Below, in pieces: positions 29,528-48,383 of a stretch of 64,000 bases of DNA (positions are counted from its first letter, which is position 1; the number at the start of each line of letters is the position of its first letter). This stretch comes from Daphnia carinata (taxonomy: Eukaryota; Arthropoda; Branchiopoda; Diplostraca; Daphniidae). Location: contig NC_081333.1 of assembly GCF_022539665.2 (NCBI RefSeq), forward strand, positions 2,976,001 through 3,040,000. The letters are read 5' to 3'. The notes beneath the pieces are model-generated. The model did not search any database. It was not told where the DNA came from and saw only the letters and a list, made by a program, of their open reading frames with translations. The position numbers and the translations under genes were made by a program.

Positions 29528-29629
29528 TGACCGGTAGATGGCGATAGCAGTAAAACAGAAAAAAACGCCAAGAAAAAAAAAATAATCACACTTTTTCTTT
29601 TTTTTTCGACCCGTAGCCATCTACCAGTC
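29528..29629. repeat. short inverted repeat with GGTAGATGGC ends
   Basis: GTGACCGGTAGATGGC at 29528 pairs imperfectly with GCCATCTACCAGTC at 29616-29629. An A-rich and a T-rich core separate them; possible MITE remnant. Confidence 0.4.
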
Positions 29630-29865
29630 AGACTCGTTATTACAGGCATGTAGGCAATTTGAGTCCATTGGATTCCAATGGCAGTGAGTTGAGTAGCGTG
29701 GCTGGAGACAAACGCGTGGCTGGAGAAAAATATTTAAAAATGGGTAAGATAATAAAAGATAAGGATGGTAAGTATAAAGATTATTACATTGGTTTTAAAT
29801 TATTAATTATTGCTTATTAGATCATCGTTTTGGAAATATATCGAATTGAATAACTTTGATGTGTC

Positions 29866-30343
29866 ATGCTAGCGCTGTAGCGTACTGGCGCGCCAGTCGT
29901 TTTTTAATTCGGTGTATTTCCAAAATTGTTGATGTTATGAAAAAAATAGCAATTTTCTCGGAATCAGTTAAAAATACATTATTCCGATGTGAAATTGAAC
30001 GCTGATCACGAATATCGGCTTTGTTTTGACATTTAACTTAACAAAATGGAGAAAAACGAAGAAAATGACCGTGGGAAAATTGCCTCCAAAACCGTCAAAA
30101 ATTGACCATCGTTGGAATTGCTTGAAAATAACACAATATACTCAAAATTTAATGCTGATTCCGAGAAAATTGCTATTTTTTTCATAACATCAACCGTTTT
30201 GGAAATACAGAGGATTGAATAACTTTGATGTGTCACGCTAACGCTGTAGCGTACTGGCGCGCCAGTAGTTTTTAAATTCGGTGTATTCCCAAAACGGTTG
30301 ATGTTATGAAAAAAATAGCAATTTTCTCGGAATCAGTATTCGA
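29866..30343. repeat. two direct copies of a foldback unit with core ACTGGCGCGCCAGT
   Basis: Copy 1 (about 29866-29967) and copy 2 (about 30213-30343) share TGAATAACTTTGATGTGTCA, the perfect palindrome ACTGGCGCGCCAGT, a GTTGATGTTATGAAAAAAAT tract and TTTCTCGGAATCAGT. Sequence at 29967-30200 recurs inverted at about 30310-30530, so the units themselves form a hairpin. A third copy lies inverted in the right arm at about 34387-34520. Confidence 0.8.
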
Positions 30344-31896
30344 TTTTGAGTATATTCTATCATTTTCAAGCAATTCCAACGATGGTCAATTTTTGACGGT
30401 TTTTGAGGCAATTTTCCCACGGTCATTTTCTTCGTTTTTCTCCGTTTTGTTAAGCCCAGTGTCAAAACAAAGCCGATATTCGTGATCAGCGTTCAATTTC
30501 AAATCGGAATAATGTATTTTTAACTAAATTAAGCAAGGATTACGAAAATTGATATCTTTTACACGTGAACCTTATGGCATTTGAATTATTAGAAGTGAAA
30601 GTTGCTACAGCCCTTACTCTTGCCCCGGACGATCGCTGAAACCCAATGCAGAAAACTGAATATCGTACCAATAGGTGGCTATAGTGTTTGGGGGATCGTC
30701 TGCAGTAAAAATTCCTGATACGAAGTTGCTACTGATTTTTTATTCGACGCTTAATACTGTTAAATACTATGGCAATCCGTTTTACCCCCCCCCCCCAAAA
30801 AAAAAAATCACACTTTTTTCTTGTTTTTCTCGTTTGTGTTTTTAGCTCAAATTTTGAGTCTACAAGCAAGTAGTTACGATTGCGAACAGCAATCCTTTAT
30901 AGTTCTGTCACAGCTAGAAGCCTCAAATAATTCTGCTTCTCTTGCTAAAGAACAACTTGTCCTTTACATTCAGAGTGTTGGTGAAGCTGTGTACTTAAAT
31001 GGCCCTAAAGATGTTTCACTTTGCTGGTATTGCAGCGATGAACATCATACATGGACTCTTTAGGTATGAAAGGAATTTTCTTGAAAATTTTTTGAATTTA
31101 TGACAAAGCATTTCTCCTCCTTTTTGCCAACCATGTCTAATCTAAAAAAAAAATTTATCCAATAGGAAAGGATTTTCAGCATACTGGGAACACAACTATC
31201 AACAATGCAACATTCTACGGGTGCTATTTTATCATCCAAGAGCCTTATACAATGATTTTCATCTGCAATTTGTATGGCCTTTCTCAAATTTCTGCCAGAA
31301 GTTGAATCTATGAGTCGCGTAAGTCACATGAGCAACAATTGAAATGCTTAATGGTGTTCTTTTTCTTTTCTCAGTATAGGTTAATAGTAACATTGGATCT
31401 GAAAAGATTCTTGGTTGGGGCAAGACACTGAATAAATTGTATTGATTGGATGGATGACATGACATTTCTATACTTAATTCGGATTCCCCAGACGGTATTT
31501 GATATTTAAAAAATTGAAGTGCATATCTGGGCTCCCTTCTTTTCTGAAGCCCCGTTTCCCCTTGACTCATAATAAGCCCGTAGGGGGTCATGCCCCTACT
31601 GTACGGTATATATAAAAACAACATATACCGAGGTTTGGAGGGCTCTGGCCGGAAAGGGGACGTGGGGTGCCGCTTAGTCCGATGATGTGTTCACGGAGGG
31701 TGACGTGGCTGCCCACAAATCCGAACTAAAGGTTAATCGCTCCTGTAAAAATGTTCCAAATCTTCAGCTCTTCTTCCGGCTTCTCTTAGCCAATCACCGG
31801 GTAATCTCCCCGGTGGGTCAACAAGGCAGTGTCTCCCCCTGCCTGGGTTGACGGCAACTTTTGAAAGGGCCATTGTGCCTTTTTAAAGTTGCAAAA
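30111..31896 (+). repeat. left arm of giant inverted repeat
   Basis: Matches 32834-34616 in reverse complement. Paired coordinates sum to 64730 over most of the arm and 64727 in the outer part. The 3-base shift is fully explained by three homopolymer length differences near 30785-30820. No other difference was seen in the parts compared. The outer break is at 30111/34616 and the inner break at 31896/32834; past the inner break, similarity decays rather than stopping cleanly. Confidence 0.92.
30821..31063 (+). other. exon-like open frame inside the palindrome (mirror 33667-33909, minus)
   Basis: This is an 80-codon frame with a TTTTTAG acceptor near its start. The product reads like protein (SSYDCEQQSFIVLSQLEAS, a CWYCSDEHHTWTL end). 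No family recognised. Because it lies in the arm it is present twice. It may be a captured gene exon or part of an element. Confidence 0.25.
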
Positions 31897-32067
31897 TCAT
31901 TTATTTGTGCAGAGTAATGTCAATACAATTTATTTTTTAAAACAAAAAAGCAAACTTGTGTTTTTAACCCTTTTCTTACTGTGCGTTTTTTTTTCCACAC
32001 ATGTATGTATTATCATTGGTTATTGATACATACCTGAAATTTTTATTGATTTGGTTTGAGCTTTCAA

Positions 32068-32138
32068 CTCAGACTCGTTGGGGAATCGAACCCTGGATGT
32101 TCGGCATACAGCGCCGATGCTCTATCAATGAGCCATGA
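32068..32138 (-). repeat. tRNA-like SINE fragment
   Basis: On the minus strand an A-box-like TGGCTCATTGATAGAGCATC is followed by a B-box GGGTTCGATTCC at tRNA spacing. Arms pair too poorly for a working tRNA. It shares AGAGCATCGGCG with the segment at 32433. Confidence 0.55.
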
Positions 32139-32267
32139 AACATATGTTGATAAGTTGGCTCTTTTCTTGTCACTTACGGACTTACATTTACACTTAAAAT
32201 AAAATTGGAATGTAATGCTGCAATGTTCTTTTCTACAATTATTCCGTTTCATTTATCATACATCACC

Positions 32268-32330
32268 TGATGTTTGAACCCAGGGTAACAGGTACCGCAG
32301 CTAAAGGCTCTACCACAGAGCTATGGATCT
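32268..32330 (-). repeat. tRNA-like SINE fragment
   Basis: On the minus strand, CATAGCTCTGTGGTAGAGCC (D-arm-like) and CCCTGGGTTCAAA (B-box-like) are spaced as in a tRNA. The anticodon arm is not convincing. Confidence 0.45.
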
Positions 32331-32432
32331 TACGGAAACTGTAGAAAGATAAAATTATACTTGTGCAGGAATGCACAGACAGCCTAGATGATAACATAGT
32401 ATATGGGATAATAAGAAACTTTAGATATATCT

Positions 32433-32500
32433 CGTGGCTCAGCGTTAGAGCATCGGCGTTGCACGCTGAATGTCCGGGGATCGGTTCCCTTACGAGTAAA
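32433..32500 (+). repeat. tRNA-like SINE fragment
   Basis: CTCGTGGCTCAGCGTTAGAG, GCATCGGCGTTGCACGC and GGGGATCGGTTCCC occur in tRNA order. CTCGT and ACGAG could pair as an acceptor end, but the T-arm is broken. Same family as the copy at 32068, opposite orientation. Confidence 0.5.
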
Positions 32501-32856
32501 GTAAAATACAAATATAAAATTACTTCAGAAAATATCCTGGCATTACACGTTGTTCCTTGAATCTAAGTTGTAGAATTCAAAGAAGTATATAGAGTTCAAG
32601 TGTAAATATAATAATTGACTACTTACAGATAAATGATAAACCAATGGAAACAATGCTTACCATCAAAGGTGGCAAAAACAATAAAGTTGAATTGAGAAAG
32701 CTAAATAACAAAAAAAAAGGTTGATAAATGTAATGGATGAACACAGCGAACACAGACAATGAATGAAGCAAATTTTGAAAAAAATATTTTATAAAAAAAA
32801 CTTTATTGACAATTCTCTGCACATTACAATTATTTTTGCAACTTTAAAAAGGCACA

Positions 32857-32997
32857 ATGGCCCTTTCAAAAGTTGCCGTCAACCCAGGCAGGGGGAGACA
32901 CTGCCTTGTTGACCCACCGGGGAGATTACCCGGTGATTGGCTAAGAGAAGCCGGAAGAAGAGCTGAAGATTTGGAACATTTTTACAGGAGCGATTAA
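32857..32997 (+). other. 46-codon open frame in a hairpin-rich part of the arm (mirror 31733-31873, minus)
   Basis: Begins MALSKVAVNPGRGRHC and continues DPPGRLPGDWLREAGRRAED, an unusually GC-rich frame for this locus. The DNA here also folds: hairpins at about 32879-32912, 32915-32935, 33100-33126 and 33131-33150. It is unclear whether the constraint is protein, RNA or transposon related. Confidence 0.25.
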
Positions 32998-33105
32998 CCT
33001 TTAGTTCGGATTTGTGGGCAGCCACGTCACCCTCCGTGAACACATCATCGGACTAAGCGGCACCCCACGTCCCCTTTCCGGCCAGAGCCCTCCAAACCTC
33101 GGTAT

Positions 33106-33670
33106 ATGTTGTTTTTATATATACCGTACAGTAGGGGCATGACCCCCTACGGGCTTATTATGAGTCAAGGGGAAACGGGGCTTCAGAAAAGAAGGGAGCC
33201 CAGATATGCACTTCAATTTTTTAAATATCAAATACCGTCTGGGGAATCCGAATTAAGTATAGAAATGTCATGTCATCCATCCAATCAATACAATTTATTC
33301 AGTGTCTTGCCCCAACCAAGAATCTTTTCAGATCCAATGTTACTATTAACCTATACTGAGAAAAGAAAAAGAACACCATTAAGCATTTCAATTGTTGCTC
33401 ATGTGACTTACGCGACTCATAGATTCAACTTCTGGCAGAAATTTGAGAAAGGCCATACAAATTGCAGATGAAAATCATTGTATAAGGCTCTTGGATGATA
33501 AAATAGCACCCGTAGAATGTTGCATTGTTGATAGTTGTGTTCCCAGTATGCTGAAAATCCTTTCCTATTGGATAAATTTTTTTTTTAGATTAGACATGGT
33601 TGGCAAAAAGGAGGAGAAATGCTTTGTCATAAATTCAAAAAATTTTCAAGAAAATTCCTTTCATACCTAA
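33106..33670 (+). other. exon-like open frames in the right arm (mirror 31060-31624, minus)
   Basis: Two overlapping frames, 33106-33471 (121 codons) and 33443-33670 (75 codons). An acceptor-like CTCATAG at about 33421 precedes a protein-like stretch in the second frame (RKAIQIADENHCIRLLDD, then APVECCIVDSCVPSML). No family is recognised and splicing cannot be fixed. Both are duplicated on the other arm. Confidence 0.25.
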
Positions 33671-34616
33671 AGAGTCCATGTATGATGTTCATCGCTGCAA
33701 TACCAGCAAAGTGAAACATCTTTAGGGCCATTTAAGTACACAGCTTCACCAACACTCTGAATGTAAAGGACAAGTTGTTCTTTAGCAAGAGAAGCAGAAT
33801 TATTTGAGGCTTCTAGCTGTGACAGAACTATAAAGGATTGCTGTTCGCAATCGTAACTACTTGCTTGTAGACTCAAAATTTGAGCTAAAAACACAAACGA
33901 GAAAAACAAGAAAAAGTGTGATTTTTTTTTGGGGGGGGGGGGTAAAACGGATTGCCATAGTATTTAACAGTATTAAGCGTCGAATAAAAAATCAGTAGCA
34001 ACTTCGTATCAGGAATTTTTACTGCAGACGATCCCCCAAACACTATAGCCACCTATTGGTACGATATTCAGTTTTCTGCATTGGGTTTCAGCGATCGTCC
34101 GGGGCAAGAGTAAGGGCTGTAGCAACTTTCACTTCTAATAATTCAAATGCCATAAGGTTCACGTGTAAAAGATATCAATTTTCGTAATCCTTGCTTAATT
34201 TAGTTAAAAATACATTATTCCGATTTGAAATTGAACGCTGATCACGAATATCGGCTTTGTTTTGACACTGGGCTTAACAAAACGGAGAAAAACGAAGAAA
34301 ATGACCGTGGGAAAATTGCCTCAAAAACCGTCAAAAATTGACCATCGTTGGAATTGCTTGAAAATGATAGAATATACTCAAAATCGAATACTGATTCCGA
34401 GAAAATTGCTATTTTTTTCATAACATCAACCGTTTTGGGAATACACCGAATTTAAAAACTACTGGCGCGCCAGTACGCTACAGCGTTAGCGTGACACATC
34501 AAAGTTATTCAATCCTCTGTATTTCCAAAACGGTTGATGTTATGAAAAAAATAGCAATTTTCTCGGAATCAGCATTAAATTTTGAGTATATTGTGTTATT
34601 TTCAAGCAATTCCAAC

Positions 34617-35388
34617 CTTGCCTTACCACTTTTGTCAAAATCGGCCAAAATCGAAATCTCACGGAATTGGATGAAACTCGTATCGTTTAATCAAAATTTA
34701 ACGGTGATTTCGATTCTGCGATTGGTTTTGTCGCTAAGCCACCCATTTTTGAAATAAATGAAAAAAAGTGTTGTTACCTGCATCTTTCACACTGCTTTGT
34801 GGACAGTGCCAGCCTGCGGCGCTGAATATTGTACATAAATTCTCGTTATAACGTATAGCAATACCGAACATTTCGACCTCTGTTGGCTATTTCACTGACT
34901 GTGAAGGATTTCTCCGTGTATGATTGTTTTCGGGCCCTGTAATCCATTCACGTAACTGGAAACAAATTTATAGTTTATGGAATAAGTCGTTATTAGCTTG
35001 ATATCTTTTCGTAACTACAGCAGTACCTAGGAGAAAATACCTGGTTGGTTAATCCATAGGTAGTAACGTTAAAAGGGGTATTTAGACCTGTAACTGCAAA
35101 TATAAGGATCTTTAACCTATGTACACTAACACATTACAGGTACGGTGATAGATATTTATCCACACGTTCATCATTATATTTCTTGTACAATTCAAAATGG
35201 GAAAAGAAACGAAAAAAAGGTGGTGCTACAAAAAAAAACCCAGATGCTACACAGAAAAAAAATAATAAGAGAAAGTTTGGCTAAAGATAGGGTGAACCTA
35301 AACATTACATGAAATAACTGAGTTTTCTCTTTGTTACCGATTTGTTTAACGTTAGCTGGAAACCAACAGAAGTAAACCCCCCAAAAAA
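34617..35388. other. intergenic, nothing recognised
   Basis: Sequence between the palindrome and the 3' end of MSH6. No coding signal, RNA gene or clear repeat was found; its right part presumably includes the MSH6 3' UTR. Confidence 0.5.
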
Positions 35389-48311: not shown

Positions 48312-48383
48312 TGGAGGAGTGGAGGATTGAACTCCAGACTTCTCGCATGCGAAGCGAGCACTCTACCACTGAGTTACACCCCC
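48312..48383 (-). tRNA. tRNA-Ala (anticodon CGC), possibly decayed
   Basis: The minus strand folds as a cloverleaf: acceptor GGGGGTG / CTCCTCC, D-stem ACTC/GAGT, anticodon stem CTCGC/GCGAG with loop TTCGCAT, T-stem TGGAG/CTCCA with TTCAATC loop, discriminator A. Anticodon CGC reads alanine, and the G3-T70 wobble pair is the known alanine identity element. D, anticodon and T stems pair perfectly. The acceptor has one T6-T67 mismatch, and the A-box is TAACTCAGTGG rather than TAGCTCAGTGG. No T-run terminator lies within about 40 bases, so it may be a pseudogene. Confidence 0.65.

What the first reader, a model, noticed from the sequence alone, without database searches (positions are those of the whole stretch)
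30111..34616. Near-perfect 1.78-kb-arm palindrome with a 0.94-kb spacer
The two arms match base for base over the parts compared, except for homopolymer lengths. Such identity means a very recent inverted duplication or active gene conversion. A transcript across it would form an exceptionally long hairpin dsRNA, a natural substrate for Dicer (hp-siRNA). It sits between MRCK and MSH6.
Basis: partly seen in the sequence, partly recalled or inferred. Interest (0 to 1): 0.75.

Follow-up and report, generated by a model that had tools for sequence, protein, structure and literature searches.

The report
Foldback transposon with one rewritten arm
The perfect palindrome is a damaged copy of a common water-flea jumping gene shaped like a giant hairpin, in which one half seems to have been replaced by a copy of the other; two related copies suggest such repair can also turn neighbouring DNA into a mirror image.

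Summary
The palindrome is real. Arms 30111-31896 and 32834-34616 show no substitutions, only two homopolymer length differences; spacer 937 bp. It belongs to a defective copy (about 29552-34616) of an abundant foldback transposon in a genome matching Daphnia carinata. An 18-bp terminus occurs 803 times, often as facing pairs about 5 kb apart. Termini are TA..TA; exact 6-bp target duplications flank 3 of 18 copies, a pattern reported for IS3EU/GingerRoot. No transposase was linked.

Arms are homogenised within copies: 15 of 31 loci had two full inner arms, differing by 0.33% on average against 4.1% between copies. Here both arms share a deletion junction not seen in the other 38 places listed, and a secondary repeat that two relatives carry on one side only. 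So one arm, probably the right, was rewritten from the other. In two other copies mirroring passes the termini by about 400-460 bp; in one, joining the outer flanks restores the target repeat.

Best explanation: a break near one end, fold-back synthesis on the opposite arm, end joining. The Dicer/siRNA idea is untested.

The parts
29552..34616 (.). Defective copy of the foldback transposon (about 5.07 kb); no outer terminal segment on the right
   Evidence: Left end by comparison with relatives
30111..31896 (+). Left arm of the palindrome
   Evidence: no substitutions against the right arm
32834..34616 (-). Right arm of the palindrome, inferred to be the copied arm
   Evidence: truncated secondary repeat and missing outer segment on this side
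29552..29824 (+). Outer terminal segment T; no counterpart found on the right
   Evidence: Matches the ends of other copies
29826..30768 (.). Secondary foldback repeat OUT (centre about 30246, GGCGCGCC)
   Evidence: Many copies elsewhere; order T-OUT-terminus shared with the right side only of C1:5690500 and C4:879500
30768..30877 (+). Terminus module: TATGGCAATCCGTTTTAC, homopolymers, TCACACTTTTTTC
30877..30885 (.). Deletion junction (about 590 bp present in two relatives is missing); the same junction at 33845-33853 in the right arm
   Evidence: The other 38 places listed start at query base 66 (=30885); C1:5690500 and C4:879500 keep 592-593 bp there
30885..31896 (+). Inner arm (ARM), left
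   Evidence: 0 of 1012 differences from the right copy
31897..32833 (.). Spacer (loop)
   Evidence: related spacers in other copies, about 75-86% identity in the longer matches
32073..32145 (-). tRNA-like unit in the spacer, inverted relative to the next
   Evidence: Rfam tRNA 21.7 bits, below the gathering score of 29
32425..32497 (+). tRNA-like unit in the spacer
   Evidence: Rfam tRNA 21.3 bits, below the gathering score of 29
32834..33845 (-). Inner arm (ARM), right
33958..34616 (-). Mirrored, truncated copy of OUT; junction with the right flank at 34616/34617
34620..34780 (+). Half of another foldback repeat (BC), starting at its central TATA

Best explanation
The palindrome is a defective copy of a roughly 5-kb foldback transposon with long inverted arms. 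One arm had a secondary foldback repeat (OUT) and lost about 590 bp. Later the other arm, probably the right, was rebuilt on it: a broken strand folded back, annealed to the left arm and was extended outwards through the inner arm, the deletion junction and about 660 bp of OUT, then was joined to the right flank. Shown: membership in a dispersed family, arms identical but for run lengths, the same changes on both sides, homogenisation within copies, mirrored flanks in two other copies. Inferred: the break (perhaps a transposase cut), fold-back priming, end joining, the left-to-right direction.
For: No substitutions between the arms. The deletion junction is in both window arms and in none of the other 38 places listed (40 scored of 1243 candidates). 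OUT lies on both sides here but on the right side only of two relatives. In 14 of 15 copies the two inner arms are closer to each other than to any arm of another copy in the set. Mirrored DNA passes the termini by about 460 bp in C3:8502509-8507530 and about 400 bp in C1:3695551-3700579. The C3 copy has 1 substitution over 2.5 kb outwards from the inner arm end, 6 mismatches over the whole 2.68-kb self-alignment; the 1.25 kb of arm read in the C1 copy has none. For C3, joining the outer flanks gives a sequence that aligns through the junction to 6 distinct copies of the target repeat, 5 of them in one array. The uninterrupted OUT palindrome expected for a centre insertion has 0 exact matches.
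Against: For the window itself, joining the flanks did not rebuild a target repeat, so its original right flank is unproven. The C1 flank join is only 66-67% identical through the junction, to 2 distinct copies. One of 15 copies (C5) has arms less alike (2.8%) than some foreign arm (1.4%). The increase of differences away from the loop is not uniform: C1:12583174 lacks it and C5 is uneven. Only 1 of the 10 facing pairs sampled has long mirrored flanks. No reads or intermediates were seen. Plain gene conversion would give the arm identity; only the mirrored flanks call for synthesis beyond the element.
Confidence: 0.72

Rival explanations
1. The transposon inserted at the exact centre of an existing perfect palindrome of flanking repeats, so the mirrored outer parts are target DNA.
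For: Foldback repeats are abundant, and one copy (C1:6712684) lies at the centre of such a repeat with a TATAGC duplication. In this window the terminus module at 30768/33958 can be read as the true terminus, with OUT as flank.
Against: Three foldbacks of these families in the window have arms 73%, 89% and 93% alike, while the mirrored parts are about 98-100% alike. The empty OUT palindrome has 0 exact matches, its natural continuation 4. For C3 the target's other half lies outside the mirrored tract. It does not explain the deletion junction in both inner arms.
Confidence: 0.1
2. Simple youth: a recent insertion of a symmetrical master copy, with no arm-to-arm copying.
For: In 14 of 15 copies the inner arms differ by under 1%.
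Against: C10 and C3:6994015 have ends of two subtypes but inner arms 0.3-0.4% apart. The deletion junction was not seen in another listed copy. Copies differ from each other by 4.1% on average. A capped list cannot exclude an unlisted master.
Confidence: 0.12
3. Assembly artefact: a fold-back chimeric read or a repeat error made the right arm.
For: No reads were available.
Against: The arms differ in two run lengths and enclose a 937-bp spacer; the mirrored flanks of C1:3695551 differ by 7 mismatches and a 4-nt gap over 420 bp, as separate loci would; many copies share the hairpin form.
Confidence: 0.06

Closest known systems
Foldback-type elements (Tetris, Galileo)
   Same: Long inverted arms with modules, rearranged copies, no transposase in Tetris. 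The Tetris paper suggests homogenisation of TIR repeats within two of three complete copies (passages of PMC4079207; passages on Galileo, PMC2775673).
   Different: Tetris has 8-10 bp duplications and Galileo is of the P superfamily; here 6 bp with TA..TA termini. Mirrored flanking DNA was not described in the passages seen.
IS3EU/GingerRoot DNA transposons
   Same: TA..TA termini and usually 6-bp duplications (passages of PMC10045372); IS3EU is listed at 0.05% of the D. pulex assembly and 0.00 in D. magna (passage of PMC8594854).
   Different: No transposase linked to this family was found; very long arms.
Fold-back inverted duplications at inverted repeats in yeast
   Same: Annealing of inverted repeats in cis, flap removal and synthesis give inverted duplications (abstract and passages of PMC10164571; fold-back priming in passages of PMC7999016).
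   Different: There a dicentric chromosome forms and the duplications span about 24 or 100 kb; here short tracts inside and beside transposons.
Mu killer of maize
   Same: An inverted duplication of transposon sequence proposed to give a long hairpin RNA and siRNA (abstract of PMC3440606).
   Different: A transposase-gene piece in a plant; here no transcription evidence.

Membership tests
Foldback-type DNA transposon | Long inverted arms making up most of the element, in many dispersed copies | tested here: met
Foldback-type DNA transposon | Target site duplication | tested here: met
   Exact 6-bp duplication in 3 of 18 copies, 15 without; 0 of 306 pairings of flanks from different copies. I set the termini by hand; C1:6712684 has a second possible right terminus.
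IS3EU/GingerRoot | TA..TA termini | tested here: met
IS3EU/GingerRoot | Usually 6-bp target duplications | tested here: inconclusive
   3 of 18 copies
IS3EU/GingerRoot | IS3-like DDE transposase in an autonomous partner | tested here: inconclusive
   77 integrase-like matches listed, none over the cut-off, positions not compared with the termini.
Hairpin siRNA locus (Mu killer-like) | Hairpin transcript and 21-22-nt small RNAs | not testable with these tools
   No RNA data

The most novel reading that the evidence does not exclude
This transposon family is a palindrome-growing machine: breaks at its ends are repaired by fold-back synthesis on the opposite arm, which keeps its arms identical, often erases one target duplication, and at times copies neighbouring host DNA into a mirror image, so the element leaves growing palindromes in the genome.
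Probability: 0.45. Interest if true: 0.68.

Novelty: new variant of a known kind. Interest (0 to 1): 0.5.

Why it matters
Fold-back repair between inverted repeats is studied in yeast and in cancer genomes. If this reading holds, a dispersed transposon family offers many natural products of that reaction in an animal, so tract length, direction and junction type could be measured from assemblies. It would also suggest why foldback elements keep their arms alike and often lack target duplications.

Tried and rejected
Centre insertion into a ready-made palindrome: two exact patterns and flank joins; judged less likely, not excluded. Known structured RNA: no Rfam family at gathering score in the four relatives searched (L066, L040, L011, L013); in the window, miRNA and tRNA matches are all below gathering score. 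Protein coding in the arms: the five arm ORFs tried have no Pfam match. One outer-arm ORF of L067 matches 13 proteins, all named as uncharacterised D. carinata proteins; of three of them, two have no Pfam match and one only matches below cut-off; the one compared with the PDB had no match. Autonomous partner: not found, search incomplete. A TA-only (mariner-like) duplication was considered and dropped after the 6-bp duplications. A blast run with unsupported gap costs returned nothing and was repeated with defaults. The ten paper searches listed no description of this family; that is no proof. The Tm1 foldback paper was seen in a listing only.

Full report
Repeat finding and self-alignment give arms 30111-31896 and 32834-34616 with a 937-bp spacer. 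The arm alignment shows differences only at 30806-30814 (3 mismatch and 3 gap columns), which I read as two run-length differences: 11 A against 9 and 6 T against 5.

Genome. The window is C3:2976001-3040000 of a 108-Mb assembly. Proteins matching an outer-arm ORF are named Daphnia carinata and lie on contigs whose lengths equal those of this assembly, so I take the species to be D. carinata.

Family. The inner arm matches 40 listed places (40 scored of 1243 candidates), 38 outside the window, often as inverted pairs around a related spacer. Six copies whose self-alignment ran through the arms have arms of about 2.2-2.7 kb and a loop of about 0.5-0.7 kb. The terminus TATGGCAATCCGTTTTAC occurs 803 times, against 0 for the reversed control. 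Counted by eye, the 100 sites listed hold 20 facing pairs 4.3-5.6 kb apart. Of 18 copies with both termini set by hand, 3 have an exact 6-bp duplication (ATTTTC, TACCAA, TATAGC), against 0 of 306 pairings of flanks from different copies; 15 of 18 have none. The 18 are 10 of the 20 facing pairs, picked by me, and 8 joined loci. Left out were the window and the loci without a clear terminus at both ends (C1:12583174, C4:879500, C3:2524888, C8:6324500). TA..TA termini with 6-bp duplications are reported for IS3EU/GingerRoot (passages of PMC10045372). No transposase was linked, so this filing is tentative.

Anatomy here, from the left: an outer terminal segment (29552-29824), a secondary foldback repeat OUT (29826-30768), a terminus module (from 30768), a deletion junction (30877/30885), the inner arm, the spacer, and then the mirror image of the inner arm, junction, module and part of OUT as far as 34616. 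C1:5690500 and C4:879500 carry the order outer segment-OUT-terminus module on the right side only, and beyond the outer segment their sequence differs from the window's. I read OUT as lying inside an arm. Because the module at 30768 is a full terminus, OUT can also be read as flank, which would make the window a third case of mirrored flanks. OUT is also found to the right of two C8 copies, not next to the arm. The deletion junction is in both window arms and in none of the other 38 listed places. The left OUT is more complete than the right and the outer segment was found only on the left, so copying probably ran from left to right.

Homogenisation. Of 31 loci examined, 15 had two full inner arms. 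They were fetched as best matches to the window's arm, spacer or OUT, so they are no random sample. Within copies the arms differ by 0-0.6% in 14 and 2.8% in one (C5); mean 0.33%, against 4.1% between copies. In 14 of 15 the sister arm is nearer than any arm of another copy; C5 is the exception. In several long-armed copies without mirrored flanks (C1:5690500, C1:6712684, C10:7310219, C3:6994015, C8:7070500) differences are more frequent in the outermost few hundred bases of the arm. C1:12583174 does not show this and C5 is uneven. C10 and C3:6994015 have ends of two subtypes but inner arms 0.3-0.4% apart. That fits gene conversion between arms, favouring the part near the loop.

Mirrored flanks. 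In C3:8502509-8507530 the mirror passes both termini by about 460 bp. In C1:3695551-3700579, 1 of the 10 pairs sampled, it passes them by about 400 bp; over 420 bp there are 7 mismatches, 4 of them in the first 400 bp, and a 4-nt gap. One more of the 10 (pair 68) has a short inverted match of 19 bases; the other 8 have none to speak of. The C3 arms have 1 substitution over 2.5 kb outwards from the inner arm end and 6 mismatches over the whole 2.68-kb alignment. The 1.25 kb of arm read in the C1 copy has none, with a 1-nt gap. With transposon and mirrored tract left out, the C3 flanks align through the junction to six distinct copies of a foldback repeat at 71-77% identity; five of these are in one array, and L089 and L090 overlap and are counted once. 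So in C3 the mirrored tract lies between the transposon end and its old flank. The C1 join spans more weakly (66-67%, two distinct copies), and the window join does not span. The right flank of the window does start at the central TATA of the same repeat family. An insertion at the centre of a ready-made OUT palindrome would need a sequence with 0 exact matches in the genome, whereas the natural continuation of OUT has 4.

Mechanism. Fold-back annealing of inverted repeats followed by synthesis is described in yeast (abstract and passages of PMC10164571; passages of the review PMC7999016). The most likely history here is a break near the right end, annealing to the left arm, synthesis outwards and end joining. 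The break, its cause, the direction and the joining are inferred.

The dsRNA/Dicer idea has a plant precedent in Mu killer (abstract of PMC3440606), but nothing here tests it.

Noticed in passing
C7:5875934-5879150 (outside the window): The repeat half that flanks the palindrome on the right recurs ten times in a row with starts 341 bp apart, so a foldback half may have become a satellite.
   Followed up: no
L066 (C1:10925000-10934850) and L067 (C1:6382000-6391800): Two about 9.4-kb variants with the same termini but one arm only; their interiors share similar ORFs.
   Followed up: partly
window 32073-32145 and 32425-32497: Two tRNA-like units inverted to each other in the spacer, with counterparts in many rows; they might act as Pol III promoters.
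   Followed up: no
L067:8634-8972: An outer-arm ORF matches 13 proteins annotated as uncharacterised in D. carinata, so transposon sequence is probably counted as genes there.
   Followed up: partly
window 48312-48383: A tRNA-Ala gene on the minus strand.
   Followed up: no
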